The notes beneath the pieces are model-generated. The model was given only the letters and a program-made list of their open reading frames with translations. It did no database searches and was not told the origin of the DNA. Positions 1 through 14,733 of a stretch of DNA of 14,733 nt are shown here, piece after piece (position 1 is the first letter of the stretch; every line of letters begins with the position of its first letter). The DNA is from Deltaproteobacteria bacterium. Lineage in GTDB: Bacteria; Desulfobacterota; Desulfobacteria; Desulfobacterales; JAFDCJ01. The position numbers and the translations under genes are program-made. The stretch covers positions 1 to 14,733 of the forward strand of contig JAJRVC010000311.1 in NCBI GenBank assembly GCA_024277475.1, written 5' to 3'.

Positions 1-652
1 CAACCTTTTTACCCTTGCGTAGAATCGTCACCCGATCCGACTGCAGCACTTCGTTCAGCTTATGGCTGATGAGAATCACGGACATATTCTTGTGGGTCAT
101 AACGCGCAGGATTTCAAACAAGGCACGCGACTCCTGGGGAGTCAAAGCAGCAGTGGGCTCATCCAGAATCAACAGGCGCGCACCCACATAGAGTGCTTTA
201 AGGATCTCAATCCACTGTTGCTGACCCACTGGCAACTGCCACACCTTCGTTGCCAGGTCCAGTTCCACACAATACCGCTCACAAAGCCGCTTGACTTCCT
301 TCTCGGCCTTGCCCAGATTCAGTAGGATTCCGGACGTATCGGTACCGACAATGATGTTTTCCAAAACGCTCAGGGTCGGCACCAGTACAAAGTGCTGGTG
401 TACCATTCCGATACCGTGGGCGATAGCTTCGGCCGGAGACGACATCTGAACAGGTTGGCCCTCCACAAAAATCTTACCCTGCTCCGGCTTATAGAAACCG
501 TAGATGCACTCGGCCAAGGTAGACTTGCCGGCACCGTTTTCACCCAGCAGACAGTGTATCTCACCCGGCCGGACATCGAAGGAAACCGAATCGATGGCAA
601 CAACTTGATGAAATTTCTTAGTCAAAGCTTGAGTGCGGAGCAATTGTTCCAT
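1..652 (-). CDS. ABC transporter ATP-binding protein, BMP/nucleoside-type (YufO/NupO-like), 3' end beyond window
   Basis: Only the first 217 residues are visible; the gene runs off the left edge. They form a complete first ATPase domain of the kind that powers BMP-dependent importers for nucleosides and similar solutes at the inner membrane; family members are about 500 residues with two such domains, so a second half is expected outside the window. Visible motifs: Walker A GENGAGKST (37-45), Q-loop Q86 inside the family-typical MVHQHFVLVPTLSVLENI, signature LPVGQQQ (140-146, where LSVGxQQ is usual), Walker B LLILDEP (160-166) and switch histidine H197. The ATG at 650-652 follows an AGGGT Shine-Dalgarno with a 5-base spacer. 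It starts 15 bases after the stop of the BMP binding-protein gene, so the two are one operon; permease genes presumably follow to the left. Family assignment is firm, substrate unknown. Confidence 0.93.
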   Translation of the reverse strand, partial: MEQLLRTQALTKKFHQVVAIDSVSFDVRPGEIHCLLGENGAGKSTLAECIYGFYKPEQGKIFVEGQPVQMSSPAEAIAHGIGMVHQHFVLVPTLSVLENIIVGTDTSGILLNLGKAEKEVKRLCERYCVELDLATKVWQLPVGQQQWIEILKALYVGARLLILDEPTAALTPQESRALFEILRVMTHKNMSVILISHKLNEVLQSDRVTILRKGKKV

Positions 653-667
653 TTAGAACCCTGAAAA

Positions 668-1693
668 TTAATCTGATTTTGGCAGTGAGGAATCCAGCTC
701 GACCTTGAGTTTGCCCGCCATGATATCGGCCCTGGCTTGTGCGACTTTGGCCTTTACGTCCTCCGGAATGACACTGTCGAAATTGTGGTAGGGCGCAATA
801 TCGGATCCGCCTTCGGCCATGGAGTACCAAACCTTTTCCATGGGAGCCTTGTAAGGCTTGCCGGTTGCATGGTGATCGCGCCACTGCCCAATGACATAAT
901 TGATTTGGGGATCCCAGTTCAAGACGGTACTCGTGGGGATGACCTCGGGGGCCACGGCGTTCAGGTCGACATAATTTCCGAAACAGTAGACATTTTTTTG
1001 TTTGCAGGTTTCGAAGGACTCGCCCAGCTGGAGGATAAAATCGGCTCCGGCTGCAATCTGAGCATTGGCGGCCTCGGAGGCCTTGGCCGGATCGTACCAG
1101 CTTTCGATGAAGCTCACCTTGACCTTGATGCCTGTATTCACCGATTGGGCTCCAGCGCGGTAAGCATGGATCTGGTCATTGACGTCGTCCGCCGGAAACA
1201 ATCCTACAACGCCCAATACATTGCTTTTGGTCATGGACCCTGCGATCAGTCCCAATAGATATGAGGGCTCATGCAGATGGGCGTATAGCAGATAGGCATT
1301 ATCGCCCAGGGGTCGGTTGCCGGACCCGGTCACCACAAATAAGATATCCGGATACTTGGCTTTAATTGATTCGACTTCATCGGATGCCGAGCTGTGAAAC
1401 CAGATAATCCCGTACTTCCCGGTTTCGGCATAGACTTCGATCACAGGCAGGACTTTGTCACCGTAAATATTTTCGGAATAATCCAATTCCAACTCCAAAC
1501 CATGGGGTTTGGCAGCTTTCACCCGCTCGAAGGAATCAATCCAGGAGGCTGTCCACGCATTTTCGATAGGCGATACGAATACCGCCGCCACTTTAAGTTT
1601 TTTCGGTACGTCACCGGCCGAGGCGGGAAAAACCGCAACCGATAAAAGCATCAGACCAGCCAGCAGGACGTGCAAAACACCAGATTGTTTCAT
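668..1693 (-). CDS. BMP family ABC transporter substrate-binding protein
   Basis: Periplasmic solute receptor of the basic membrane protein (BMP, PF02608-type) family, which feeds ribose/galactose-type permeases and in characterised cases binds nucleosides. The 341-residue product starts with a classical signal peptide: MKQ, hydrophobic core 6-22, then ASA|GD at 24-28. No lipobox cysteine is present, so it should be a soluble periplasmic protein. The mature part shows BMP features: ETGKYGIIWFHSSASDEVE (a region where the family reads GF--D), VVGLFPADDVNDQIHAYRAGA, and an SWYDPAKASEAANAQIAAGAD helix. An ATG 15 bases upstream (1708) is in frame, but it overlaps the GGAGGG ribosome site (1701-1706) that sits 7 bases before the 1693 ATG, so 1693 is the better start. 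It is the first gene of the operon with the ATPase to its left. Substrate cannot be read from sequence. Confidence 0.93.
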   Translation of the reverse strand: MKQSGVLHVLLAGLMLLSVAVFPASAGDVPKKLKVAAVFVSPIENAWTASWIDSFERVKAAKPHGLELELDYSENIYGDKVLPVIEVYAETGKYGIIWFHSSASDEVESIKAKYPDILFVVTGSGNRPLGDNAYLLYAHLHEPSYLLGLIAGSMTKSNVLGVVGLFPADDVNDQIHAYRAGAQSVNTGIKVKVSFIESWYDPAKASEAANAQIAAGADFILQLGESFETCKQKNVYCFGNYVDLNAVAPEVIPTSTVLNWDPQINYVIGQWRDHHATGKPYKAPMEKVWYSMAEGGSDIAPYHNFDSVIPEDVKAKVAQARADIMAGKLKVELDSSLPKSD

Positions 1694-1751
1694 TGAATAA
1701 CCCTCCATTTTTTCTTTTACGTTTACATTCGAATGTTTGCCCCCGGATTAA

Positions 1752-2238: not shown

Positions 2239-2613
2239 TCATCCCAGGATGCGCTCATACGCAATCAGCGCCCAAACAACGGCAGCGGTGATCATGCTGA
2301 TAAATGCTGCAGCGGAGCCCAGATCTTTTGCCAGTTTTGATAATTTGTGTCGTTCCGGCCCAATTCGATCCACTACCGCCTCCACTGCAGAGTTCAGCAA
2401 CTCGACAATGAGAATCGACATAGCGGATACAATCAGCAGAGCCCGCTCCACCGCAGTTCTTCCAAGCCAAAGGCCCACCGGAAACATTAGGAGAATTATT
2501 GTAGCTTCCCACCGAAACGCCTGTTCATTTTTCCAGGCAGCCTTGATGCCGGCCACCGACCAAATGACGGCTTTTATGATATGCCCTATGATCGTATCCT
2601 TTGCTTCTCCCAT
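2239..2613 (-). CDS. dgkA: Diacylglycerol kinase (prokaryotic, integral membrane)
   Basis: Phosphorylates diacylglycerol (and often undecaprenol) with ATP in the inner membrane, recycling lipid for phospholipid or cell-envelope synthesis. The 124-residue product is close to the usual length of about 122. The N-terminal amphipathic part carries the family motif NEQAFRWEA (29-37, with E30 and E36). The catalytic stretch VELLNSAVEAVVDR (70-83) contains E71, N74, E78 and D82, which correspond to E69, N72, E76 and D80 of the E. coli enzyme with a constant offset of two. Three membrane helices are evident (about 37-53, 57-75 and 98-118). Its ATG lies 13 bases after the stop of the 61-residue gene with only a weak ribosome site, so translation is probably coupled. 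It is the last gene of the paaK-like operon; the functional link to a CoA ligase is not obvious. Confidence 0.96.
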   Translation of the reverse strand: MGEAKDTIIGHIIKAVIWSVAGIKAAWKNEQAFRWEATIILLMFPVGLWLGRTAVERALLIVSAMSILIVELLNSAVEAVVDRIGPERHKLSKLAKDLGSAAAFISMITAAVVWALIAYERILG

Positions 2614-2823: not shown

Positions 2824-4158
2824 CTATTTCGGTTTCTGGCGCAAGTCTTTAAAGCGTTTAGCTTTCACTTCGTACCGGGGCAAAGTTTCGCAACCGCAAA
2901 TTTCAATATCATATCGTAAATTGGTCTTTAACCTGAGCTGATCGGCCAGCTCGGATTCAACCCATTGGCACTGGTCCTGGGCTTCAGGCAATACTTCCAC
3001 TTTGAGTTTTATTCGATCCGTATGACCGACCCGGTCCACAATGACTTCGTATTCGTCTCCCAGGCCGTTGATGCCGTGAACGACCTCCTCAATCGCAGAG
3101 GGTGCCAGGAGGACACCTTTGACCTTGGTGATATCATCGGCCCTGCCGACCACGCCGCCTTTAATCAGGCGGGACGTCCGTCCGCAGGAGCACGGGTCGG
3201 CAGACCATTCGATAACATCCTTGGAGTCAAAACGAATACAGGGCTGAGCCTGGCGGTCCAGGGCGGTGATAACCATTTTTCCCCGTCGTCCCGGTTCTTC
3301 GATGATTTCGCCGCTTTCCACATCCTCGATTTCAACCAAAAACAAAGCATCGTTGACATGCAGGCCACCCGGCTGATCCCGGCACTCAAAAGACCAGGCA
3401 CCGATTTCGGTGGCTCCGGCATGATCATACACCTTGGCCCCCCAGGCGTCTTCCAAACGCCTTTTGGTACTGGGAATACTGGCACCACACTCGCCGGCAC
3501 AGGTAATTTTGTCAATGGTTAATTCAGACGGATCAATCTCCATTTTCATTTGCGCCGTCTCGGCCATCCCGAGGATATAGGTCGGGGTGCCCATCATGGC
3601 CGTGGCCTGCAATTCCCGGATTTTAAGGATCCTGGCTTTGGTGTCCAGCACTCCTCCCGGAATAACTTCGCAGCCGATCTTTTCAGCGGCATAGTGGCCA
3701 GCCCAAAAAGCGACAAAGATGTTATAGCCGAAGGGAATAAATACCCGGTCCCTGGGACGATAGCCCTGGGCCCAAAGGATATAGGACCAGCACTCTGCCC
3801 ACCACTCCCAATCCTGCCAGGTATCCGGTTGGTAGACGGGTTGGCCGGTGGTACCGCTGGTTTGGCGAAAGACGGTCACTTCTTCCAGGGGAACACAGAG
3901 GGCATCACCATAGGGAAACGGGTCCTTTCTCTGGATGTCCCGCATCATGGATTTTTCCACCTTGGGTATCCGACGAATATCTTCAAAGGAGCGGATATCC
4001 TCCGGCTTTAGGCCGGCTTCATCATAAATCTTGCGATGAAATTTTGAACGCTTATAGGTCCACTTAAAAATCTTACGAAACTTTTTAAGCTGTAGTTTTC
4101 GAATTTTTTCCCGCGGCAATGTCTCCAGCACGGGGTTCCAGTAGATTTGATCAGCCAT
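2824..4158 (-). CDS. Phenylacetate-CoA ligase family protein (PaaK-like aryl/acyl-CoA ligase)
   Basis: ANL-superfamily enzyme that adenylates a carboxylic acid with ATP and transfers it to CoA in the cytoplasm. At 444 residues it matches PaaK length. Motifs: phosphate loop QTSGTTGQP (99-107), A5-like DHAGATEIG (245-253), RFDSKD (309-314), the PaaK-type CSCGR (323-327), hinge region GRADDITKVKG (338-348), and a C-terminal YEVKAKRFKD (429-438) whose lysines 433/435 are candidates for the adenylation lysine. The start is fixed by AAGGAT eight bases before the ATG. It heads a three-gene operon with the 61-residue gene and dgkA and faces a PaaI-type thioesterase across a 389-base gap. Many anaerobes carry several such paralogues, so the substrate could be phenylacetate, another aromatic acid or a different acid; I would not name it paaK. 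Confidence 0.93.
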   Translation of the reverse strand: MADQIYWNPVLETLPREKIRKLQLKKFRKIFKWTYKRSKFHRKIYDEAGLKPEDIRSFEDIRRIPKVEKSMMRDIQRKDPFPYGDALCVPLEEVTVFRQTSGTTGQPVYQPDTWQDWEWWAECWSYILWAQGYRPRDRVFIPFGYNIFVAFWAGHYAAEKIGCEVIPGGVLDTKARILKIRELQATAMMGTPTYILGMAETAQMKMEIDPSELTIDKITCAGECGASIPSTKRRLEDAWGAKVYDHAGATEIGAWSFECRDQPGGLHVNDALFLVEIEDVESGEIIEEPGRRGKMVITALDRQAQPCIRFDSKDVIEWSADPCSCGRTSRLIKGGVVGRADDITKVKGVLLAPSAIEEVVHGINGLGDEYEVIVDRVGHTDRIKLKVEVLPEAQDQCQWVESELADQLRLKTNLRYDIEICGCETLPRYEVKAKRFKDLRQKPK

Positions 4159-4547: not shown

Positions 4548-4979
4548 ATGGATGTGTTGGTCAAAAAAGCAATTGCCCGGGCGGTGGAAAAAGAACCGTT
4601 TGCTCAGGCGTTGCGGATGGAGCTGGTCGAATTGGAAGACGGCTATTCGGTCGTTAAAATGGAGTATAAGCCGCAAAAAATGGACAATATTTACAGCCGC
4701 GCCCACGGCGGGGCGATATATGCACTGATTGATGAGGCTTTTGAAACTGCCGGCCAGACGGACGGCACCGTGGCGGTGGCATTGAATGTAAATGTTACCT
4801 ACGTGTCCAGCCCCGAACCGGGATTGCAATTACGCGCGGAAGCCCGCCGGGTGAGCAGGACAAAAAAGACCGCAAGTTACGACATCAAAGTCACAGACCA
4901 AAACGGACGGATTATTTCCCTGTGCCAGGCCCTGGCTTTTCGCACGGGCAAACCGATTCCGTTTCTTAAAACCGGCTAA
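4548..4979 (+). CDS. PaaI-family hotdog-fold acyl-CoA thioesterase
   Basis: Hydrolyses acyl- or aryl-CoA thioesters in the cytoplasm; PaaI-type enzymes typically act as housekeeping thioesterases that release CoA from dead-end phenylacetate-pathway intermediates. The 143-residue length is normal. The hallmark HGGAIYALIDEAFETA spans 53-68, with the central-helix carboxylates D62/E63 in the catalytic position, followed by the core strand NVNVTYVSSPEPGLQLRAEAR (80-100). Start: ATG seven bases after a strong GGGGAG. It is the only convincing plus-strand gene and is divergent from the PaaK-like ligase, consistent with a ligase-thioesterase pair acting on the same CoA ester. Relatives in the hotdog superfamily include 4-hydroxybenzoyl-CoA thioesterases, so the acyl group is uncertain. 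Confidence 0.92.
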   Translation: MDVLVKKAIARAVEKEPFAQALRMELVELEDGYSVVKMEYKPQKMDNIYSRAHGGAIYALIDEAFETAGQTDGTVAVALNVNVTYVSSPEPGLQLRAEARRVSRTKKTASYDIKVTDQNGRIISLCQALAFRTGKPIPFLKTG

Positions 4980-5103: not shown

Positions 5104-6252
5104 TCATCTTTCTACAGCCCAGTAATCCTTATTTCTGAACGGCTTGCCATAGCCTAAAAGATCATCGATCCACACGATGGGCCGGCTTAAGAAAGGCAGG
5201 TTTTTTATGTGCCAACGCGTGATGTCGTGGAGGATTCCCGAGGGTTTATTGAAAGGGCAAGTCATCACGCAGTTATTGCAATCCATCCAGTTCTTGACCC
5301 AGAACATAAAACACTTTTCCGGATTGATGTACCACTTGCGCACCCCGGAAAAGTTAGAAATCGATGGCCCCTCCAGGGTCGGTTCGCCCATGGAGATGGC
5401 CTTGGACGGACAATGCTTGGCGCACTTCAGACAGATCCGACAAAAGGCCTCAACTCCGAAATGGATGGGATGATCATAGGCCAGGGGCATATCGGTAAAC
5501 ACTTTGCAAATCCGTACCCGGGGTCCGTAGGGTTTGGTAATTAAAAGACCCATACGTCCCAATTCGCCCAGGCCGGCAGCGATAGCCAGGGGAATGGAAG
5601 GTCCCGTATCGTTGCCCGAAGGCACCGCCCGGTAGCCCAGACCCCGAATAAAAGTGGCCACCAGATTGGCCACCACCGCCTGCATGGAGTAGCCCAGACC
5701 GGTAGCCGCACCGCTGATTGCATCCGGGGAATAGCGAGTTAGATCGTAATCCATCGCCACGGCCATGACGATGGCGTGATGGCACCCTTCAGGTAGTTCC
5801 AATGGGTCGTGTGTCATCTCCAACAGATTATATTCACGGGCGTAGATCAGGTTGGGATGGGCATAGCAGGTCCCCACCAGGTCAGCTCCCAAAAACCGGG
5901 CTGCTTTTTTAACCATGCGACTGTTGGCTTCAGGCGTCTGTTCCACCGGATCCCCGGTCTCAACAAAACGTTTGACCTTATCAGCGATGTGGGTCCAGGA
6001 GTATAGGCCGTGATTGCTGCGCATGTTGCCGAAGGCAAAGTCATACTCCATGTTCCACGCGGCATTACGCAGGGCGTAGTCGGGTTTACGGTAACCGGAC
6101 CGGCTATCATACTTGACTTGGCCGTAAAGCCGGTTGCCGTGGAGAACAAAAGCATCGTCCCAGGTACGTCGTTTGAACATCTCGTTTCTCTGATCAAAGC
6201 GATAATCCGGTACATCCAAGGGAAAGAGCTCTGTTGCCGTGTTAAGTGTCAT
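5104..6252 (-). CDS. Reductive dehalogenase (RdhA)-like iron-sulfur/corrinoid protein, cytosolic form
   Basis: Matches the RdhA catalytic subunit in order. N-terminal FDQRNEMFKRRTWD (19-32) is RdhA-typical. The corrinoid-domain core runs from GLGYSMQ (185-191) through SGNDTGPSIPLA and AGLGELGRMG to GPRVRICKVFTDMPL (243-257). A first cluster motif follows, C271-X2-C274-X2-C277-X3-C281P, then a second, C314-X10-C325-X2-C328-X3-C332P, and a C-terminal DDLLGYG (363-369). Y188, N214 and R247 keep the spacing (26 and 33) that I recall for PceA Y246, N272 and R305. RdhA proteins reductively remove halogens using a corrinoid and two 4Fe-4S clusters. There is no Tat signal and no RdhB anchor gene nearby, so it should be cytosolic and probably non-respiratory; it also lacks the fused flavin reductase of BhbA-type enzymes. 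Its ATG overlaps the livF stop (TAATG) behind GGGG. A non-dehalogenating corrinoid reductase is possible; QueG is unlikely given the second cluster. Confidence 0.88.
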   Translation of the reverse strand: MTLNTATELFPLDVPDYRFDQRNEMFKRRTWDDAFVLHGNRLYGQVKYDSRSGYRKPDYALRNAAWNMEYDFAFGNMRSNHGLYSWTHIADKVKRFVETGDPVEQTPEANSRMVKKAARFLGADLVGTCYAHPNLIYAREYNLLEMTHDPLELPEGCHHAIVMAVAMDYDLTRYSPDAISGAATGLGYSMQAVVANLVATFIRGLGYRAVPSGNDTGPSIPLAIAAGLGELGRMGLLITKPYGPRVRICKVFTDMPLAYDHPIHFGVEAFCRICLKCAKHCPSKAISMGEPTLEGPSISNFSGVRKWYINPEKCFMFWVKNWMDCNNCVMTCPFNKPSGILHDITRWHIKNLPFLSRPIVWIDDLLGYGKPFRNKDYWAVER

Positions 6253-6959
6253 TACATCCCCATATATGCCTTGCGCAGGTGGTCGTCTTTAATCAGTTCG
6301 GCACCTTGTCCCTGCATGACAATACGCCCGTTTTCAATGACATAGGCCCGGTCGGACATTTTTAGAGCCCGCACCACGTTCTGTTCCACCAGCAGGATGG
6401 TCATCCCTGCGGTTTTGATTCGTTCCAGAATCTTGAAGGTGTCGTCCACCAAAATGGGCGACAGTCCCAGGGAGGGCTCATCCACTGTCAACAACCGGGG
6501 TTTGGCCATCAACCCCCGGGCGATAGCCAGCATCTGTTGTTCCCCGCCACTCATGGAACCGGCCATCTGGTGGCGAAGCCGCTTGAGCCGGGGGAACATA
6601 TCGTAGGAGCGGGTGATCAAGTCGGCTATCTCGCCGTCCTTGCGCTTGGAATAGCCCCCTATCTGCAAATTATCCTCCACCGTCATCATGGGAAAGACCC
6701 GGCGGCCTTCGGGTATATGAATAATACCATGATTAACCATTTCGTAGGCCGGTGTGTCAATGAGTTCATGGCCGCCAAAACTGATGGTTCCGGAGACCTT
6801 TTTGAGCATTCCCGAAAGGCATCTCAGCAGGGTCGATTTACCAGCCGAGTTGGCCCCGACCATGGAAACCAGTTCACCCTCCGCCACCTCAAGGGAGACA
6901 TCGAAAAGCACCTGTACATCACCGTAGTAGGCATTGAGCCCCTCAACTTGTAACAGCAA
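6252..6959 (-). CDS. livF: Branched-chain amino acid-type ABC transporter ATP-binding protein LivF
   Basis: One of the two ATPases that drive a HAAT-family importer at the cytoplasmic face of the inner membrane. 235 residues, usual length. Walker A GANSAGKST (35-43), the LivF-typical HIPEGRRVFP (81-90), signature MSGGEQQ (136-142), Walker B LLTVDEP (156-162), and LVEQNV (190-195), where LivF proteins commonly have glutamine in place of the switch histidine. The start is TTG (6957-6959) behind GGAAG; it lies 17 bases inside the end of livG. Its stop overlaps the start of the RdhA-like gene, so the two are translationally coupled. The name reflects family; the transported solute may be an aromatic or other carboxylate instead of an amino acid. 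Confidence 0.94.
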   Translation of the reverse strand: MLLQVEGLNAYYGDVQVLFDVSLEVAEGELVSMVGANSAGKSTLLRCLSGMLKKVSGTISFGGHELIDTPAYEMVNHGIIHIPEGRRVFPMMTVEDNLQIGGYSKRKDGEIADLITRSYDMFPRLKRLRHQMAGSMSGGEQQMLAIARGLMAKPRLLTVDEPSLGLSPILVDDTFKILERIKTAGMTILLVEQNVVRALKMSDRAYVIENGRIVMQGQGAELIKDDHLRKAYMGM

Positions 6960-7668
6960 GATATTCTTCCGCCAAATAAGCTTTGATCACATCAGGATCG
7001 CAGGAAATCGACTCGGGTGAGCCCTCGCACAGCATCTTTCCGTAATCCAAAACGATGATACGGTCCGACAAGGACATCATCACACCCATAATGTGTTCGA
7101 TAATAAACAAGGTGATCCCGGAGAGGCGAATATTTTCGATCAGACGCTTTACTTCTTCGAGTTCCTGGAGATTGAGCCCGGCCATAACTTCGTCCAATAA
7201 TAAAAGCTGGGGTTGAGTCGCCAACCCCCGGGCGATTTCCAACCGCTTGCGATCGGCAATGGTCAGGGAGCTACCCAACACATCACGTTTGTCGTAAAGC
7301 CCGACGAACTCCAAAATATCCAGGGCCTTCCGTTCAGCCTTTTTGAGGCTCCCGGTACGAATGAGAGCCCCCACCATCACATTTTTGGTAACGCTGATAT
7401 TACCGAAAGGTTTGGTGATCTGAAATGTCCGGCATAAGCCCCGTTTACAGATTTGCTCAGGTTTAAGCCGGTCGATGGACTGCCCGCCGAACTTGATGTG
7501 TCCCGTCCTGGAGCGATATACGCCCGCTAAGACATTGAACAGTGTGGTCTTGCCGGCACCATTGGGACCGATCAGCCCCACCACCTCTCCCGAATTAATG
7601 TCGAAGCTGACGTCGGTAAGGACGACATTGCCCCCGAACCACTTACTGATGTCGCGTACTTGCAGCAT
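6943..7668 (-). CDS. livG: Branched-chain amino acid-type ABC transporter ATP-binding protein LivG
   Basis: Second ATPase of the HAAT importer, 241 residues from the chosen start. Walker A GPNGAGKTT (34-42), Q-loop Q83, Walker B LLLLDEV (156-162) and switch histidine H192 in IIEHIM (189-194) are intact. The signature reads SLTIADRKRLEIARGL, lacking the glycine of LSGGQ; this variant occurs in some LivG relatives. A longer reading frame opens at 7737, but the ATG at 7668 follows AGGGGC (7673-7678) by four bases and begins the conserved MLQVRDISKWFGG. That ribosome site overlaps the livM stop, so livM and livG are coupled. The C-terminal HIMGVMMSLSDRIIVLDYGK is standard for LivG. Confidence 0.94.
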   Translation of the reverse strand: MLQVRDISKWFGGNVVLTDVSFDINSGEVVGLIGPNGAGKTTLFNVLAGVYRSRTGHIKFGGQSIDRLKPEQICKRGLCRTFQITKPFGNISVTKNVMVGALIRTGSLKKAERKALDILEFVGLYDKRDVLGSSLTIADRKRLEIARGLATQPQLLLLDEVMAGLNLQELEEVKRLIENIRLSGITLFIIEHIMGVMMSLSDRIIVLDYGKMLCEGSPESISCDPDVIKAYLAEEYLAVTS

Positions 7669-7678
7669 GTTTGCCCCT

Positions 7679-8665
7679 TTATGAATTCGCAGGCCCGACG
7701 GCGGCGCGACGATTTTTGATTTTACCGTAAATCCCATCCGGCATGTAGAGCATAATGACGACGAGAATCACGCCGTAAATGATCATATAAAGCCCGGGAA
7801 TTGAGGTTCCCAGCCAGGCCCTGAGGCCAATGGTGATGGGGATGAAAATCGCCGCGCCGATGATGGGCCCGAAGACGGTGCCTACCCCGCCCACAATGGC
7901 GAACAAGGCTACTTGGATTGAAATCGGCAGACGGATTACACTGGAAGGATCGATGTAGACCACATACTGGGCGTAGAAGGTGCCTATAATAGCGGAGAGG
8001 AACGAACTCAGCGCCATGGCGATCAAGCGTACCCGGCCGGTATTGACTCCCAGAGCCCGGGCCGCATCCTCATTCTCTTTAAAAGCGGTCAGGTAGTATC
8101 CCAGTTTGGAGTTCTCGATATAATAACAGATGCCGGTTACCCCCGCACACAACACCAATCCAATGTAAACATAGGGCAATTTTGAGTCAAAAGCGTAGTT
8201 GTATAAATTCGGTTCAATAGGCAGTGCCAGGCCCTCGGCGCCGCCGGTAAGCGAACGCCAACTCAAGGCAAGGATGGAACACACTTCCCCGAAGGCCAGG
8301 GTTGCCAGGGCAAAGTAGTGGGAACGCAGCCGGAAGCAGACAATCCCCACCAACAGGCCCACGGTCATGGCCAGAAGGCCACCGGCAAACATGCCCAACC
8401 AGGGCGTCAGGCCGTAGCGTAAAAACAGCAGAGTCGATGTATAGGCGCCAATGCCAAAAAAAGCATTATGTCCCAAGGAGGTCATGCCCGCGTATCCAGA
8501 AAGGATATTCCAGGCCCCGGCAAAGGCCCCCCACATAAAAACGAGAATAAATCCGTCCAGATAGAAATTGTTTTTTATAAACAGGGGGCAGATCGCCATG
8601 ACCGCCAGCGCAGTCCAGATCCAGACCCAGTGTTTATGATCGGTACGACTATTCGATTGCTTCAA
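7679..8665 (-). CDS. livM: Branched-chain amino acid-type ABC transporter permease LivM
   Basis: Inner-membrane permease partner of LivH. About 328 residues and rich in hydrophobic helices. The LivM hallmark SGYAGMTSLGHNAFFGIGAYT lies near residues 56-77. The cytoplasmic coupling loop FKENEDAARALGVNTGRVRL lies near 195-215, and late helices include VALFAIVGGVGTVFGP. No ATG is near the beginning. Two TTG codons are available: 8672-8674, only one base after GAGGAG, and 8663-8665, ten bases after it; the second fits ribosome spacing better and is used here. Either start overlaps the end of livH, which reads EEELERIEAIE. A possible downstream start at M26 of the long form would cut the first helix. 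Confidence 0.93.
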   Translation of the reverse strand: MKQSNSRTDHKHWVWIWTALAVMAICPLFIKNNFYLDGFILVFMWGAFAGAWNILSGYAGMTSLGHNAFFGIGAYTSTLLFLRYGLTPWLGMFAGGLLAMTVGLLVGIVCFRLRSHYFALATLAFGEVCSILALSWRSLTGGAEGLALPIEPNLYNYAFDSKLPYVYIGLVLCAGVTGICYYIENSKLGYYLTAFKENEDAARALGVNTGRVRLIAMALSSFLSAIIGTFYAQYVVYIDPSSVIRLPISIQVALFAIVGGVGTVFGPIIGAAIFIPITIGLRAWLGTSIPGLYMIIYGVILVVIMLYMPDGIYGKIKNRRAAVGPANS

Positions 8666-9575
8666 TTCGTTCAAGCTCCTCTTCTCCCTTCACCCCGAAC
8701 AGTCCCGAGGGTTTGACCACCAGGACGGCGATGAAAACCAGGAAGTAAATTGCCTGTTTGGACTCGGGACTGATCAGAAAACTGGAAAAGACTTCCAGCA
8801 CTCCGATAAAAAGACCGGCAATGACAGCCCCCGCAATACTGCCCATGCCGCCCAGAACCACCACCACGAACATGATCAGCACGAACTCGAACCCCACAAA
8901 AGGGTGGGCGGTAAAAATGGGCATCATCAAGGCCCCCGCCACGCCCACCATCAGCAACCCGATGGCAAACGTCAGCGTAAAAACCCGATCGATGTTGATC
9001 CCCATCAAAAGGGCCGTAGAGCGGTCCTGGGCCGTGGCCCGGATCACCTTGCCGGTGTAACTTTTTTGAATAAACAGGTAAAAAATCAGGGCGAGCCCCA
9101 TGCCCAATACAAAAGCGATCAACCGGGCCGGATTAACAATCAACTCCTCTATGCCCAAGGCCGGGAAGGGACCGATGATAATGGGGGATTTGGCGTACTC
9201 CAGGCTGATGGTTCGAAAGTCCGCCGACCAGAAAAGAAGGACTACATTCTGAATCACCGTGGAGATTCCAACGGTTACGAAAATCTGGGCCAGGTGGTTT
9301 TTGCCGATGGTTTGGCGCACAATAAAGCGATAGGACAGCCAGCCGAGAGCGAAAAGGATCGGACCCACGATCAGGATAGACAAATAGGGATCGATACCGG
9401 CAAGAGTATAAAGCCAAAAGGTAGCGTACATCGCCAACATTAAATATTCACCATGGGCGAAGTTGACGATCTTCATGACCCCGAAAATCAGCGTTAACCC
9501 GATGGAAGACAGGGCATAGATTCCGCCCAGTAAGATGCCGGAAATAAGCAGTTGTATAAATAATGTCAGATCCAT
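8649..9575 (-). CDS. livH: Branched-chain amino acid-type ABC transporter permease LivH
   Basis: Inner-membrane permease of the HAAT importer, 308 residues, normal length. The N-terminal GGIYALSSIGLTLIFGVMKI with NFAHGEYLMLAMY (residues about 17-50) is the LivH signature. The coupling loop RATAQDRSTALLMGIN (about 180-196) and the helix VVVVLGGMGSIAGAVIAGL follow. The ATG at 9573-9575 has only a weak ribosome site (GGATGAG). It follows livK after a 153-base gap with a hairpin, an arrangement that often lets the binding protein be made in excess over the membrane parts. Its 3' end overlaps livM. Confidence 0.94.
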   Translation of the reverse strand: MDLTLFIQLLISGILLGGIYALSSIGLTLIFGVMKIVNFAHGEYLMLAMYATFWLYTLAGIDPYLSILIVGPILFALGWLSYRFIVRQTIGKNHLAQIFVTVGISTVIQNVVLLFWSADFRTISLEYAKSPIIIGPFPALGIEELIVNPARLIAFVLGMGLALIFYLFIQKSYTGKVIRATAQDRSTALLMGINIDRVFTLTFAIGLLMVGVAGALMMPIFTAHPFVGFEFVLIMFVVVVLGGMGSIAGAVIAGLFIGVLEVFSSFLISPESKQAIYFLVFIAVLVVKPSGLFGVKGEEELERIEAIE

Positions 9576-9681
9576 GTTCTCATCCGGGACGGCTTTGGCA
9601 TACGCCTAAACGTCAGCTTTGATAACCGCAATCGCCGCAGTGTCGTTCGTCAGTGGAAGGTGCGTCTGCTGATCCTGAAGA

Positions 9682-9703
9682 GCCCCGGCCACAGGGTCGG
9701 GAC
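9682..9703 (-). promoter_or_regulatory. Intercistronic hairpin between livK and livH
   Basis: On the minus-strand RNA, the 9-base segment GUCCCGACC pairs with GGCCGGGGC (one mismatch, one G-U) around a CUGU loop. No T-run follows, so it is not a full terminator. It may stabilise the livK message or reduce read-through into livHMGF. Confidence 0.45.
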
Positions 9704-9728
9704 CCAGTTCGTCATTTTCCAATGCTCG

Positions 9729-10949
9729 TTACTGCAATTCGGACGAGGCAACCGCATAGGGATAGATCAATTTGATCTTTCCGTTCTGCCATTGATTGAT
9801 CCCGGCCGAGGAGTAAATGTTTTGGCCCCTGATTTTGCCCTCGGAGGCGAATTGTATGCCCCAATTGAGAACCCCTTCACCGGGTTTCACATCCAGGCTT
9901 GCAGCCGCCTCGCGAAGTTTGTCCGGATCCAGACTGCCGGCTTTAGGTAAAATAAATTTGTAAAGAATCCAGGCACCGGCAAAACCGACAAATGCCGTGG
10001 GGTTGGGATATTCGCCGTTGTGTGACGCCCTATAGCGCTTTACAAATTCTTCGGCATCTTTTCTCTGCTCGGCACCCAGTCCTTTGGTGGATATTTCCGA
10101 GGGAATCCCACCAGCCAAAATCCCGTTTGCGTCCTCACCCAGGGCCTCGTAGAAATCCGGATTGCCCTGGCCGGCAGTGGTACCGAAGATCATCGCTTTG
10201 AGTCGATATTCTCTGGCCTGACGGTGAAACAGAATCGCGTCGTTGATATACTGAGCTGCCAGAATCAGATCGGGTTTTTTCTGTTTTAATTTGAGAACTA
10301 GACCCGACAGATCCGCTGACTTGGCCGAGTAGGCTTCTTCAGCGACTACATTCATGCCCAATTCCTTTGCCCTGGCGGACAGACCTTTACCAGAAGATGT
10401 ACCGAACCCGCCGTCTTCATGAATAATAGCCACACGCAAATCTTTAGCTTTCTTTCCGAATTTCTTGGGGGCCAGTACTTCGGCCGTAAAGTCCACCATC
10501 TGGTAAGCAAACATCCGGCCGGAAAAAGTGGTTCGTACCAGATATTTAAAACCCCGGGCTGTAATCAAGCCGGATACCCCTTCGTTCTCGAGATAAAAGA
10601 CCTTGTTCTTTTCCGCCACTACAGTGGCCGCCATAGATAGGGAGGACGCCTGGGTTCCGATAATGCAGGTAATTTTTTCGTTGTTGATCAGCCGATTGGC
10701 TTCACTGGCCGCTGCCTGGGGATCCGGAGCGTCGGCACTGATCAATTCCACTTTTCTGCCCAAGACACCGCCGGCATCATTGATCATGTTTGTGGCGATT
10801 TTTACCCCGTCAAAGTTCTTGGTCCCGTTTTTGGAAAGTGCGCCTGTGACGGGAAAAATGGTTCCAATCCGCCACGCATCAGCGGCCCAGGCCGTTGCGC
10901 CAAAAATTAACGCTAAAACAACAATTCCGATTCCAACTAATTTACGCAT
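9729..10949 (-). CDS. livK: ABC transporter substrate-binding protein, LivK/HAAT type
   Basis: Periplasmic receptor (type I periplasmic-binding fold) delivering solute to LivHMGF. 406 residues with a signal peptide: MRK, hydrophobic core 4-18, AWA|AD at 20-24. The mature protein begins WRIGTIFPVTGALSKNGTKN, followed by the typical INDAGGVLGRKVELI and IGTQASSLSMAATVVAEKNKV, and later DLILAAQYINDAILFHRQARE. Start ATG 5 bases after a strong AGGAGG. A small hairpin, AGGTG/CACCT (10968-10982), sits just before that ribosome site. It is the first gene of the liv-rdh operon, behind a candidate promoter near 11294. Receptors of this class bind branched-chain amino acids, amides, urea or aromatic acids; the ligand cannot be told from sequence, but the RdhA-like gene in the same operon argues against simple leucine transport. 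Confidence 0.92.
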   Translation of the reverse strand: MRKLVGIGIVVLALIFGATAWAADAWRIGTIFPVTGALSKNGTKNFDGVKIATNMINDAGGVLGRKVELISADAPDPQAAASEANRLINNEKITCIIGTQASSLSMAATVVAEKNKVFYLENEGVSGLITARGFKYLVRTTFSGRMFAYQMVDFTAEVLAPKKFGKKAKDLRVAIIHEDGGFGTSSGKGLSARAKELGMNVVAEEAYSAKSADLSGLVLKLKQKKPDLILAAQYINDAILFHRQAREYRLKAMIFGTTAGQGNPDFYEALGEDANGILAGGIPSEISTKGLGAEQRKDAEEFVKRYRASHNGEYPNPTAFVGFAGAWILYKFILPKAGSLDPDKLREAAASLDVKPGEGVLNWGIQFASEGKIRGQNIYSSAGINQWQNGKIKLIYPYAVASSELQ

Positions 10950-11311: not shown

Positions 11312-11382
11312 GCGAAAGCACCATTTCATGAATATCTCCACTGGTGAATTCAAAGGATGGGGTCGATTTTGTCATGTTGTTT

Positions 11383-11502
11383 ACCCTGCGGGAAAGCCGG
11401 AGAACTTCAGATCCTGTGTTGTCAAGGATTCGAGGTAAACGACTACAACTTCACCCTTGACGCCTTAGCTCTGAAGCCCTCCGGCTTTTGCAACGATAGG
11501 GT
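11383..11502. repeat. 120-base imperfect palindromic element downstream of hutH
   Basis: Nested pairs: ACCCT (11383-11387) with AGGGT (11498-11502); AAAGCCGGAG (11393-11402) with CTCCGGCTTT (11479-11488); CTTCAG (11405-11410) with CTGAAG (11471-11476); and GTCAAGG (11421-11427) with CCTTGAC (11455-11461). The loop also holds GGTAAACGAC (11434-11443), a 9/10 inverse match to GTTGTTTACC (11376-11385), giving an alternative fold. No T-run follows either side. It begins 22 bases after the hutH stop. A structured RNA 3' end or a palindromic repeat family member are both possible. Confidence 0.65.
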
Positions 11503-11524
11503 TCCCTGTGCAGTTGATCCTTAA

Positions 11525-13045
11525 TCAAGATAAATCGCCGACCGCATCTTCAACGCGCTTAACCAGTTGTCCGCTTTGGATCAATTTAACAACTCTTTCA
11601 ATATCTTTAGATAGAACACGGTCCTTGTCCATGTGACTGACCACCTCTCGGATGCTCTGGAAAGCTGCTTCAGTACCCCGGCCGGGGCGACCTTTGGTGA
11701 GCAGATCAAGCGCTTGGGCGCCGCAAAGGAGTTCGATAGCGAGAACATTTTCGGCATTCTCTAAAACGGAGCGAGCCTTGCGGGCGGAGATGGTACCCAT
11801 GGAGACATGGTCTTCCTTGTTTCCGGAAGTAGGAATCGAGTCAACACAAGCCGGATGAGACAATGGTTTATTCTCAGAGACCAGGGCAGCTGCAGTATAT
11901 TGGGCTATCATAAACCCGGAGTTGAGGCCGCCCTCGTTTACCAGGAAGGCGGGCAAACCGCTCAACTGGGGATTGACCAGCCGTTCGATCCGACGTTCAG
12001 ACACGTTAGCCAGTTCGGCCAAAGCCATGCATAGGTAGTCGGCGGTCAGGGCCAGGGGTTGACCATGAAAATTGCCACCCAGGAGAAAGTCGCCCTGATC
12101 AGGCATGATTAATGGGTTGGTTGTGCACGAATTAATCTCAATGTCCACTACGGATTTAATATGATTGATGGCGTCTTTGCTGGCTCCGTGAATCTGTGGC
12201 GAGCAACGGAGAGTATAGGCATCCTGAATTCTAGTACAATCCTTGTGAGATGAAATGATCTCACTGGAATCCGTTATCCGGGCCATGTTGTCAGCCGATG
12301 CGATTTGCCCGGCGTGTGGTCTGATGCGATGGATTCTGGGATCGAATTCAGTATTGGAACCCATCAGGGTCTCCAGGCTAATGGAACAGGCGATATCGGC
12401 AATCTTTGCCAATCTGATGGCATCGTGGACGGCCAAAGTCGATAGGGCGCTCATGACCTGGGTGCCGTTAGTTAACGCGACCCCTTCGCCGGCTTCCAAT
12501 TCAACAGGAGATAAGCCTACTTTGGCTAATCCTTCCGCACCGCTCATTCTCTGCCCCTTGTAGAAGGCTTCTCCCTGGCCAATGAGCACCAGTGCCAGAT
12601 GCGCCATGGGACACAGGTCTCCACTGGCTCCCACAGATCCCCTCTCCGGGACTACGGGTGTCAAACCACTGTTGAGCAGAGCGGCCAAAGCATGAATGGT
12701 TTCCGGTCTTATTCCTGAATAACCCTGGGTCAGGTCTTGCAATCGGATGGCCATTGTGGCTCGGACCACTTCCTCGTCGAAGGGATTACCAACTCCGGCG
12801 GCATGACTCATTAGCAGGTTAACCTGGAGTTGACGGGAATCGTCGATGGAAATGATCTGGTCGGACAGCAGCCCGAAACCGGTTGTGATGGCGTAAATTG
12901 CCCGACCCTCGGCGATCCAGCCTTCGATGAGTTTTCGGGCCTTGGCGGTCTTGACCAAGGCCTCTTCGGATACTTCAATACCGGCTCCGTTACGGGCCAC
13001 ATTTACAACACCCTCAATACTGATCCTATCTTTGCCTACCAACAT
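11525..13045 (-). CDS. hutH: Histidine ammonia-lyase
   Basis: Removes ammonia from L-histidine to give urocanate, in the cytoplasm, using an MIO cofactor formed from an internal Ala-Ser-Gly. The 506-residue length is normal. The MIO triad is A140-S141-G142 in GSVGASGDLCPMAH. Active-site residues match Pseudomonas HAL with a constant offset of 2-3: Y51 (Y53), H81 (H83), N193 (N195), Y277 (Y280), R280 (R283), F326 (F329) and E411 (E414). H81 and E411 favour histidine over phenylalanine as substrate; a related aminomutase or tyrosine lyase is less likely. One change stands out: SGNKEDHVS has K410 where the family mostly has glutamine. ATG follows GGGGAG by nine bases. No hutU, hutI or hutG is in the window, so it stands alone between the liv operon and the molybdoenzyme. 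Confidence 0.93.
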   Translation of the reverse strand: MLVGKDRISIEGVVNVARNGAGIEVSEEALVKTAKARKLIEGWIAEGRAIYAITTGFGLLSDQIISIDDSRQLQVNLLMSHAAGVGNPFDEEVVRATMAIRLQDLTQGYSGIRPETIHALAALLNSGLTPVVPERGSVGASGDLCPMAHLALVLIGQGEAFYKGQRMSGAEGLAKVGLSPVELEAGEGVALTNGTQVMSALSTLAVHDAIRLAKIADIACSISLETLMGSNTEFDPRIHRIRPHAGQIASADNMARITDSSEIISSHKDCTRIQDAYTLRCSPQIHGASKDAINHIKSVVDIEINSCTTNPLIMPDQGDFLLGGNFHGQPLALTADYLCMALAELANVSERRIERLVNPQLSGLPAFLVNEGGLNSGFMIAQYTAAALVSENKPLSHPACVDSIPTSGNKEDHVSMGTISARKARSVLENAENVLAIELLCGAQALDLLTKGRPGRGTEAAFQSIREVVSHMDKDRVLSKDIERVVKLIQSGQLVKRVEDAVGDLS

Positions 13046-13362: not shown

Positions 13363-14733
13363 CTAATCCTGCTCTTTTGTCACCTGGCAAAGTAGAGCTT
13401 TAAATCCTGGATAACCTGAAATCGGATCCTGATAATTCGGCTCGATAAGCTCGTTTACATCCGCTCCTGGATAGTTATGATATACCGAAACTACGCCGGG
13501 GGGAACCATCTCCGTCAAATTGGCTTTAAGCCTGAGTGAATTGCGCGGCGTCTTCAACTCGATCCAATCGTCCGGCCCAAGGCCCCGTTCGGCGGCATCA
13601 TGAGGATTGATGTCCACCATCGGATCCGGCCGCAGACTCCGGGTCGAGGACATGCGAAATGTGCGGCTATGAATGAACATGGGCAGTCTGGCGCCGGTTG
13701 TCAGAATGAGGGGGTATTCCTTATATATCTCTGGAGTGGAGATCGGACTCATCTGCGGTTCAATATAACGGGGCAAAGGATCCAGGCCCAAATTTTTCAT
13801 AGTGGTCGATGTAAACTCCATCTTCCTTGACGGGGTATTAAAGCCATGAAGTTTGTATTTCTCATAAGGCGGCATCGACACATTTTTCAGTGGCATGCCC
13901 CCCGGGTGTTTTTTCAATTCGGCGGTCGTCAGGCCCGAGGGTTCCAAAATCCAGTTAACACAGGCCTCGTGACCGCTGGTTAATAGCAAATCACCCGGAG
14001 TGAGTTGTTTTGCCAATTCAACGATGATATCGTTGTCGGGTCTGGATTCACCCCTGGGTTCAATCGTGGGTTTCGTCCAGATGGCATATTGTTCCGGGTA
14101 CAGCTTCAATTCACTTCTTTCGAACGAAGAGCATGCCGGTAAAATGATATCGGCCAGTTTAGTGCTCTCAGTCAGGAAAAGATCGGCTACCGCCAGGAAA
14201 TCAAGCTCTTTTAGGCTGTCACGCATAAAATCCGATCCCGGCCAGAGATGATAATTTAAACCAAATGCGACCATGGCCCGAATAGGATAGGGCTGCTTAC
14301 TTCTAATTTGATATGGAAGCTGCATAGCCTGACCTTCATCGACCAAATGCGCCCAAACGGGAAATTCTTCCTGCCCGACTCTTTGCGCCAGTTCAGCCCA
14401 GGAACGACTCAATGCAAACTCATGCTGACGGGTTATGAGCCCGTTCTCCACTTCGATGTAACTCTCAGGAACAACGTAATTGCCGCCTTCACGGTCGAAA
14501 TTGCCGGTCAGGCCTGCTAAGGCGGTTATCAGACGATGGTTGTTTACACCATTTGTATGATGCACGGAAGTATTGGGGCTGCAAAGCATCGCGGCGGTCT
14601 TACTTGTGGCATAGAGTCTCGCCGCATCGCGCATAGACATGACCGGTACACCGGTAATCTCCTGGACCCGTTGCGGGGGAAATTCCATAACGTAATCCTG
14701 GTATTCGTCAAAACCCTGGGTATAGGTCGAAAC
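13363..14733 (-). CDS. Molybdopterin-dependent oxidoreductase, large subunit (C-terminal 456 residues; N-terminus beyond window)
   Basis: The frame is open to the right edge, so the N-terminus, including any 4Fe-4S motif or Tat signal, is missing; full enzymes of this class have about 650-900 residues. Visible: GFDEYQDYVMEF and ITGVP...RDAARLYA, then NTSVHHTNGVNNHRL with ALAGLTGNFDREGGN, typical of the bis-MGD (DMSO reductase) superfamily. TESTKLADIILPACSSFERSE follows. The C-terminal dinucleotide-binding domain contains HSRTFRM, VDINPHDAAERGLGPDDWIEL and GVVSVYHNYPGADVNELI. The internal ATG at 14688 is not the real start, since coding homology continues upstream. The style resembles the branch holding acetylene hydratase, polysulfide/thiosulfate reductases and the PadB subunit of phenylacetyl-CoA oxidoreductase; I cannot choose among them. 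Partner iron-sulfur and membrane subunits, if any, would lie outside. Confidence 0.9.
   Translation of the reverse strand, partial: VSTYTQGFDEYQDYVMEFPPQRVQEITGVPVMSMRDAARLYATSKTAAMLCSPNTSVHHTNGVNNHRLITALAGLTGNFDREGGNYVVPESYIEVENGLITRQHEFALSRSWAELAQRVGQEEFPVWAHLVDEGQAMQLPYQIRSKQPYPIRAMVAFGLNYHLWPGSDFMRDSLKELDFLAVADLFLTESTKLADIILPACSSFERSELKLYPEQYAIWTKPTIEPRGESRPDNDIIVELAKQLTPGDLLLTSGHEACVNWILEPSGLTTAELKKHPGGMPLKNVSMPPYEKYKLHGFNTPSRKMEFTSTTMKNLGLDPLPRYIEPQMSPISTPEIYKEYPLILTTGARLPMFIHSRTFRMSSTRSLRPDPMVDINPHDAAERGLGPDDWIELKTPRNSLRLKANLTEMVPPGVVSVYHNYPGADVNELIEPNYQDPISGYPGFKALLCQVTKEQD

What the first reader, a model, noticed from the sequence alone, without database searches (positions are those of the whole stretch)
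5104..10949. Cytosolic RdhA-like enzyme encoded in one operon with a liv-type importer
Seen: livK-H-M-G-F run without internal promoters of note, and the RdhA-like gene starts in the livF stop (TAATG). Known: respiratory RdhA proteins carry a Tat signal and pair with RdhB, while non-respiratory BhbA/NpRdhA types are cytosolic with a fused reductase. This protein has neither arrangement. Inference: an importer-coupled, separately reduced intracellular dehalogenase or a new corrinoid reductase acting on the transported solute.
Basis: partly seen in the sequence, partly recalled or inferred. Interest (0 to 1): 0.72.

Follow-up and report, generated by a model that had tools for sequence, protein, structure and literature searches.

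The report
Dehalogenase tied to histidine breakdown genes
Some uncultured bacteria carry a dehalogenating enzyme that stays inside the cell, encoded right after an amino-acid-type importer and often beside the genes for breaking down histidine, which suggests that it strips bromine, chlorine or iodine from an imported histidine-like compound before the cell eats it.

Summary

The liv link recurs in 5 of 7 genome loci with RdhA at least 65% identical.

Best reading: an imported, probably halogenated, histidine-type compound is dehalogenated in the cytosol and fed to HutH/HutU/HutI. Bromo- and chlorohistidine are reported from marine sponges. The substrate is inferred, not shown; two of the seven relatives lack both links, and a haloaromatic acid remains possible. 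New variant of a known kind.

The parts
5104..6252 (-). rdhA: 382-aa reductive dehalogenase homologue without export signal; FeS1 CRICLKCAKHCP, FeS2 C-X10-C-X2-C-X3-CP; Y188/N214/R247 match PceA Y246/N272/R305; clade-specific pair R62 + D324 at PceA Glu92/Tyr382 positions
6252..6959 (-). livF: ABC ATPase; stop overlaps rdhA start (TAATG)
6943..7668 (-). livG: ABC ATPase (start at inner ATG inferred from L002)
7679..8674 (-). livM: ABC permease
8649..9575 (-). livH: ABC permease
9729..10949 (-). livK: solute-binding protein (Peripla_BP_6)
   Evidence: best solved relative 8wch, 136 bits
11525..13045 (-). hutH: histidine ammonia-lyase with the MIO Ala-Ser-Gly triad and the Ser-His and Glu positions of solved HAL chains
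   Evidence: TIGR01225 673.5 bits vs cut-off 539.15; alignment with HAL structures
4548..4979 (+). PaaI-like hotdog thioesterase, convergent neighbour (rival substrate clue)
   Evidence: TIGR00369 above cut-off, PaaI model 79.9 below its 118.9
2824..4158 (-). PaaK-like AMP-dependent acyl-CoA ligase (rival substrate clue)
   Evidence: TIGR02155 232.8 bits, below equivalog cut-off 646.3

Best explanation
A Liv-type ABC importer brings a histidine-type compound into the cell. An RdhA encoded in the same run of genes, expected to carry a corrinoid and two [4Fe-4S] clusters and to be reduced by an unlinked ferredoxin- or flavodoxin-level donor, removes a halogen (Br, Cl or I on the imidazole ring) by two-electron reductive dehalogenation in the cytosol. 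The freed histidine (or urocanate, if the enzyme acts after HutH) enters the ordinary hut pathway: HutH, HutU, HutI, then FtcD/FchA. Shown here: RdhA family membership, catalytic residues, lack of a recognisable export signal, gene overlap with livF, and recurrent closeness to hut genes. Inferred: co-transcription, corrinoid content, electron donor, that the liv solute and the RdhA substrate are the same, and that it is a halogenated histidine or close relative. Personal odds: RdhA family 0.97; one operon with liv 0.95; functional tie to histidine catabolism 0.65; halohistidine or halourocanate in particular 0.4.
For: RdhA membership. liv genes directly before rdhA in 5 of 7 genome loci with RdhA >=65% identical: L002, L004 (livG-livF seen, contig edge), L005 (a hutU fragment lies between), L006, L097. 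hut genes beside rdhA in 4 of 7: L002 (hutI, fchA, ftcD, hutU, hutH), L004 (hutU is the next gene), L005 (hutU, hutH, hutU, hutI), L097 (hutH); names checked by NCBIfam models for genes of L002, L005 and L019 and for the hutH of G002, G004, G360 and G008. Chance model P(>=4 of 7) about 1.3e-6. L005 is from Bacillota, the other three from one order; gene arrangement differs in each. Distant case L019 (49%): rdhA-hutH-hutU-ftcD. In G002, G004, G360 and G008 the only hutH match of the genome at E<=1e-60 is the one beside rdhA. All 7 genomes with RdhA >=65% carry hutU, two of them (G001, G360) only a long divergent form. Liv importers also lie near hut genes where no close rdhA is present (L127, L128, L132). 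R62 and D324, at positions of PceA's polar upper cavity (Glu92, Tyr382; PMC5500849, passages), occur together in 8 of 8 clade rows and 37 of 37 A1 relatives but in 0 of 68 rows under 50% identity, and could hold an amino-acid carboxylate and ammonium. Natural substrates exist: monobromohistidine in a sponge skeleton (PMC4145324, passages; marked there as not verified with a standard), chlorohistidine in a sponge peptide (PMC7460063, passages).
Against: L001 and L003 have neither liv permeases nor hut genes nearby (L001 shows only 3.7 kb on one side); L006 ends after rdhA. The window shows only hutH, 0.6 kb upstream of livK, not the whole pathway. hutU is common in the order of G001 (80 of 194 genomes), so co-occurrence there is not significant (3/3 vs 77/191, p 0.07); in the order of G002 three of seven RdhA-bearing genomes (55-56% relatives) lack hutU. 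The R62/D324 pair is also common in the 54-60% group, which shows no hut linkage apart from L011's fragments, and L019, which has hut genes, lacks both residues. All 120 LivK relatives listed are 69% identical or more, many on long contigs whose lengths do not appear among the listed RdhA contigs, which suggests that this importer is not tied to RdhA. No halide, corrinoid or activity evidence. The chance model ignores shared ancestry; three of the four hut-positive genomes are in one order.
Confidence: 0.42

Rival explanations
1. The enzyme dehalogenates an imported haloaromatic acid (halo-phenylacetate or halo-hydroxybenzoate), as NpRdhA-type catabolic RdhAs do, and the product goes through the PaaK-like ligase nearby.
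For: PaaK-like ligase and PaaI-like thioesterase lie just downstream in the window; a distant paralogue in G003 (L021, 49%) lies between two ligases 68% and 71% identical to the window's; NpRdhA is solved with 3-bromo-4-hydroxybenzoate (6zy1 title).
Against: No match to the window's paaK or paaI at any of the seven close loci held (some are short contigs); the window's paaI is on the opposite strand; the recurring neighbours are hut genes.
Confidence: 0.22
2. A cytosolic RdhA for some other imported organohalide (halotyrosine, halopyrrole, haloimidazole); hut genes are near only because catabolic genes cluster.
For: More distant cytosolic RdhAs sit near varied genes: TRAP transporter genes in 9 of 81 loci clustered (Pfam-checked for L010 and L048), a molybdenum hydroxylase in L007, liv genes of another kind near L007, L041 and L106; two close relatives have no hut link (L001, L003).
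Against: Low chance of 4 of 7 by random placement and the genome's only hutH beside rdhA in four genomes.
Confidence: 0.22
3. A corrinoid reductase that cleaves a bond other than carbon-halogen, for instance C-S of thiohistidines (ergothioneine, ovothiol).
Against: Linked HutU proteins score as urocanate hydratase (876, 753, 988 bits, cut-off 375) and stay below the cut-offs of the thiourocanate hydratase models; HutH keeps the HAL MIO triad; PceA catalytic residues are kept.
Confidence: 0.09
4. A QueG-like or other non-RdhA protein, as some source annotations say (epoxyqueuosine reductase).
Confidence: 0.02

Closest known systems
PceA-type respiratory reductive dehalogenases (TIGR02486; 8q4h, 4uqu)
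   Same: Fold over 330-368 aligned residues at 33-36% identity, both FeS motifs, Tyr/Asn/Arg triad
   Different: No Tat signal, no RdhB neighbour, shorter; upper-cavity Glu92 and Tyr382 replaced by Arg62 and Asp324; encoded with an importer
NpRdhA catabolic reductive dehalogenase (4ras, 6zy1)
   Different: No fused reductase; Asn214 and Arg247 as in PceA, where NpRdhA shows other residues in my alignment; other genomic setting
Tat-less putative RdhAs of Asgard archaea and Deltaproteobacteria (PMC6737245, PMC6797604)
   Same: No Tat; catalytic residues kept; function unknown
   Different: No N-terminal transmembrane helices as in the hybrid class of PMC6797604; this clade has the liv and hut setting
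QueG epoxyqueuosine reductase
   Same: Part of the fold and an FeS region
   Different: Model scores and fold match far weaker
Liv-type importer plus hut cluster (histidine uptake and degradation)
   Same: Liv genes directly beside hutU/ftcD in L127 and L128 (BLAST labels)
   Different: No rdhA there; those LivK proteins are only 27-28% identical to the window's

Membership tests
RdhA reductive dehalogenase (TIGR02486) | Curated model score above cut-off | tested here: met
   226.4 vs 160.35 bits; Pfam PF13486 below its cut-off, 19.8 vs 24.3
RdhA reductive dehalogenase (TIGR02486) | Two 4Fe-4S motifs | tested here: met
   Motif check, cysteines invariant in 38 rows
RdhA reductive dehalogenase (TIGR02486) | PceA active-site Tyr246, Asn272, Arg305 | tested here: met
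   Gap-free alignment gives Y188, N214, R247; invariant in 38 rows
RdhA reductive dehalogenase (TIGR02486) | RdhA fold | tested here: met
RdhA reductive dehalogenase (TIGR02486) | Corrinoid bound and C-halogen cleavage | not testable with these tools
   Needs the purified protein
Respiratory RdhAB | Tat signal and RdhB partner | tested here: not met
   No Tat motif or hydrophobic N-terminus; 124 bases to the next gene, livF on the other side
NpRdhA/BhbA type | Fused reductase domain | tested here: not met
   382 aa, only Fer4-type and weak Dehalogenase matches
Hybrid RdhA with N-terminal transmembrane helices | Three N-terminal transmembrane helices | tested here: not met
   Highest 19-residue hydropathy starting in the first 90 residues is -0.01
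QueG | TIGR00276 above cut-off | tested here: not met
   44.2 vs 200 bits
HutH histidine ammonia-lyase (neighbour) | Equivalog model and HAL active-site residues | tested here: met
   673.5 vs 539.15 bits; alignment with HAL chains; residue roles recalled
Halohistidine catabolic operon (proposed) | Conserved liv-rdhA-hut neighbourhood | tested here: inconclusive
   liv 5 of 7, hut 4 of 7 with one untestable, both absent in 2 of 7

The most novel reading that the evidence does not exclude
A clade of cytosolic reductive dehalogenases is the missing first (or second) step of halohistidine catabolism: it takes bromo-, chloro- or iodohistidine imported by its Liv transporter, holds the amino-acid end with Arg62 and Asp324, strips the ring halogen and delivers histidine or urocanate to HutH/HutU, so that these uncultured, probably anaerobic bacteria can live on halogenated protein residues such as those of marine animals.
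Probability: 0.35. Interest if true: 0.78.

Novelty: new variant of a known kind. Interest (0 to 1): 0.58.

Why it matters
Many RdhA homologues have no known substrate (recalled; PMC6797604 and PMC6737245 call their own groups functionally unknown or putative). Here genome context points to a definite class of test substrates. If right, it would link the hut pathway to the natural halogen cycle and give a reason why bacteria keep reductive dehalogenases that are not exported and cannot serve organohalide respiration in the usual way. Full-text searches for 'reductive dehalogenase' with 'histidine degradation' gave no paper, and with 'urocanate' three held, two listed, both on protein flavinylation; this covers only the open library searched.

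Tried and rejected
QueG placement: rejected by model scores and fold. Ergothioneine/thiohistidine route: considered because NCBIfam holds thiourocanate hydratase models; the linked HutU proteins score as ordinary urocanase. General claim that cytosolic RdhAs are importer-coupled: TRAP genes in 9 of 81 loci, liv next to a few (L106 at 46%; L007, L041 nearby), but liv and TRAP operons are common (recalled) and I had no base rate, so I do not claim it. The script also flags L003 as 'liv next to rdhA'; that is a lone ABC ATPase 30% identical without permeases, and I did not count it. Whole genome of the window: none held. Searches for more close relatives gave few: 9 of 395 genomes in the phylum of G002 at E<=1e-90, 1 of 301 in the phylum of G008, 7 of 85 in the order of G002 at E<=1e-130 (one search repeated the same 85), 1 of 2, 3 of 194, 2 of 389 at E<=1e-165 (both already known). 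Contig-length matching: six lengths >=4000 shared between the RdhA and LivK hit lists and two between RdhA and HutH, against 0.15 and 0.4 in a jittered control; this hints at more linked contigs (one of the six is L097's own) but is indirect, and the second result is weak. Promoter/terminator scan: promoters at shuffle level, terminator-like sites somewhat above it and inside genes; not used. Ligand prediction for LivK: not made; its solved relatives are diverse. The tree is a quick one without bootstrap and warns that long branches meet, so deep placement of PceA and NpRdhA is not relied on. In the residue table two of the 16 rows of the 54-60% group repeat other rows (L084 = L011, L095 = L015).

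Full report
What is there. On the minus strand the window carries livK (9729-10949), livH (8649-9575), livM (7679-8674), livG (6943-7668), livF (6252-6959) and a 382-aa ORF (5104-6252) whose ATG overlaps the livF stop as TAATG. Upstream, same direction, is hutH (11525-13045); further up a molybdopterin oxidoreductase cut by the window edge. Downstream are a convergent PaaI-like thioesterase (4548-4979, plus strand) and a PaaK-like ligase (2824-4158).

Relatives and the liv link. The protein search found 3433 relatives at E<=1e-20 among 5331 candidates. A scan of genome contigs with a 38-row alignment confirmed 107 stretches and kept 80 loci. Six of these have RdhA at least 65% identical (L001-L006); a seventh genome, G360, came from whole-genome searches (L097). 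On a quick tree these and the window form an 8-row group with SH-aLRT 99. Of the seven loci, five have liv genes directly before rdhA on the same strand: L002, L004 (only livG-livF before the contig edge), L005 (with a 157-aa hutU fragment between), L006 and L097; L001 and L003 do not. Six long contig lengths shared by the RdhA and LivK hit lists hint at further linked contigs (indirect; one is L097's). Liv genes of other kinds also lie next to or near a few distant RdhAs (L106, L041, L007).

The hut link. Beside rdhA lie: in L002 hutI, fchA, ftcD, hutU and hutH on the other strand, starting 86 bases away; in L004 hutU, 216 bases downstream on the same strand, running off the contig; in L005 hutU, hutH, hutU and hutI downstream; in L097 hutH, 3.7 kb downstream on the other strand, after a second rdhA. 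NCBIfam puts hutI, ftcD and hutU of L002 and hutU of L005 and L019 above cut-off; fchA of L002, the hutU fragment and the cut-off hutI of L005 are below. The hutH of G002, G004, G360 and G008 are above cut-off. L006 ends after rdhA; L001 (9.9 kb up, 3.7 kb down) and L003 (10 kb each way) have none. So 4 of 7, plus hutH in the window. The arrangement differs each time, and L005 belongs to Bacillota. With the number of hutH/hutU places per genome and genome sizes, random placement gives P(>=4 of 7) of about 1.3e-6; this ignores shared ancestry, and three of the four genomes (G002, G003, G360) are from one order. Within the 80 loci, hut genes are at 3 of 6 close loci and 2 of 74 others (L011, short pieces; L019), Fisher p 0.002; many loci are short, which lowers both counts. 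L019 (49% identity, Chloroflexota by its title) is rdhA-hutH-hutU-ftcD. In G002, G004, G360 and G008 the genome's only hutH match at E<=1e-60 is the one beside rdhA (14 of 18 genomes had a match, 10 over the cut-off).

Genome-level control. All 7 genomes with close RdhA hold hutU; in G001 and G360 it is a long divergent form only. Base rates: 14 of 85 in the order of G002, 80 of 194 in the order of G001. For RdhA at E<=1e-130: 4 of 7 with hutU against 10 of 78 others in the first order (p 0.013), 3 of 3 against 77 of 191 in the second (p 0.07). Supportive, not strong. Liv importers stand beside hutU and ftcD in genomes without close RdhA (L127, L128) and near G360's other hut genes (L132) (BLAST labels), so Liv-type uptake of histidine is plausible here, though those LivK proteins are only 27-30% identical to the window's.

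A possible substrate clamp. In PceA the polar upper cavity holds Tyr102, Tyr382, Glu92 and Lys64 (PMC5500849, passages seen). At the Glu92 position the clade has Arg62 and at Tyr382 Asp324: both in 8 of 8 clade rows and 37 of 37 A1 relatives. In the 54-60% group Arg62 is in 15 of 16 rows and Asp324 in 14 of 16 (two rows are repeats). Among 45 rows at 42-49% Arg62 is in 2 and Asp324 in 24, among 23 rows below 42% in 1 and 6, and in none of these 68 do both occur. An Arg/Asp pair there could hold an amino-acid carboxylate and ammonium. This is inference: the N-terminal alignment to PceA is weak (13 bits), the 54-60% group has the pair without hut linkage, and L019 has hut without the pair.

Reading. 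HutH of the window keeps the MIO triad and the Ser-His and Glu positions of solved HAL chains (residue roles and the Pseudomonas origin of those chains recalled), so its substrate is most likely histidine itself. The simplest model is: Liv import, dehalogenation in the cytosol, HutH and the rest of hut. Monobromohistidine was reported from a sponge skeleton (PMC4145324, passages; marked as not verified with a standard), chlorohistidine from a sponge peptide (PMC7460063, passages), and a review names 5-bromohistidine for the same sponge (PMC8659048, one passage). Electron donor: nothing is linked; ferredoxin or flavodoxin is a guess. The main rivals are a haloaromatic acid (PaaK/PaaI neighbours in the window; the L021 paralogue between two PaaK-like genes; but no such gene at the seven close loci) and another organohalide with incidental hut closeness.

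Verdict. The importer link recurs in 5 of 7 close relatives. The new point is the recurring histidine-degradation neighbourhood, which turns a generic unknown dehalogenase into one with a testable substrate class. I rate it a new variant of a known kind.

Noticed in passing
L097:9287-12743; L003:8745-11143; L043:2551 and 3715; L064; L066: Two rdhA genes in tandem at five loci (in L003 they overlap by 4 bases); in L097, L003 and L066 the partner copy is distant (33-43% identical to the window's RdhA).
   Followed up: no
L010, L022, L023, L025, L029, L032, L033, L048, L059: More distant cytosolic RdhA genes lie on loci with TRAP transporter genes (DctP/DctQ/DctM) (clusters; Pfam-checked in L010 and L048); no base rate was measured.
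   Followed up: partly
L005:9206-9679, 11324-12967, 17204-18856: Three hutU-like stretches around one rdhA: a 157-aa N-terminal fragment between livF and rdhA, and two full copies, of which the one next to rdhA is the more divergent (753 vs 930 bits).
   Followed up: partly
G360:C4, G001:C75, G007:C1 and many genomes: A long divergent urocanase (open frames mostly about 650-750 aa, about 405-445 bits to TIGR01228) is common in the order of G001 and outnumbers the ordinary hutU of about 930 bits there.
   Followed up: no
L101:5375-9264; L009:2717-6690: ORFs that look by eye like hydantoinase A/B subunits lie near rdhA in two relatives at 56-58% identity; not tested with a model.
   Followed up: no
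L021 (first 2.9 kb): In G003's contig, a second RdhA (49%) lies between two PaaK-like ligases 68% and 71% identical to the window's ligase.
   Followed up: partly
window 2-1708: Part of a second importer: an ABC ATPase and a Bmp/PnrA-like binding protein.
   Followed up: no
window 2239-2613 and 13363-14733: Prokaryotic diacylglycerol kinase and the C-terminal part of a molybdopterin oxidoreductase cut by the window edge.
   Followed up: no
L100:18284-19591 (same stretch as in L011): Short hutU-like (35%) and hutI-like (48%) open frames 7 kb from an rdhA at 56%; they look broken or fragmentary.
   Followed up: no
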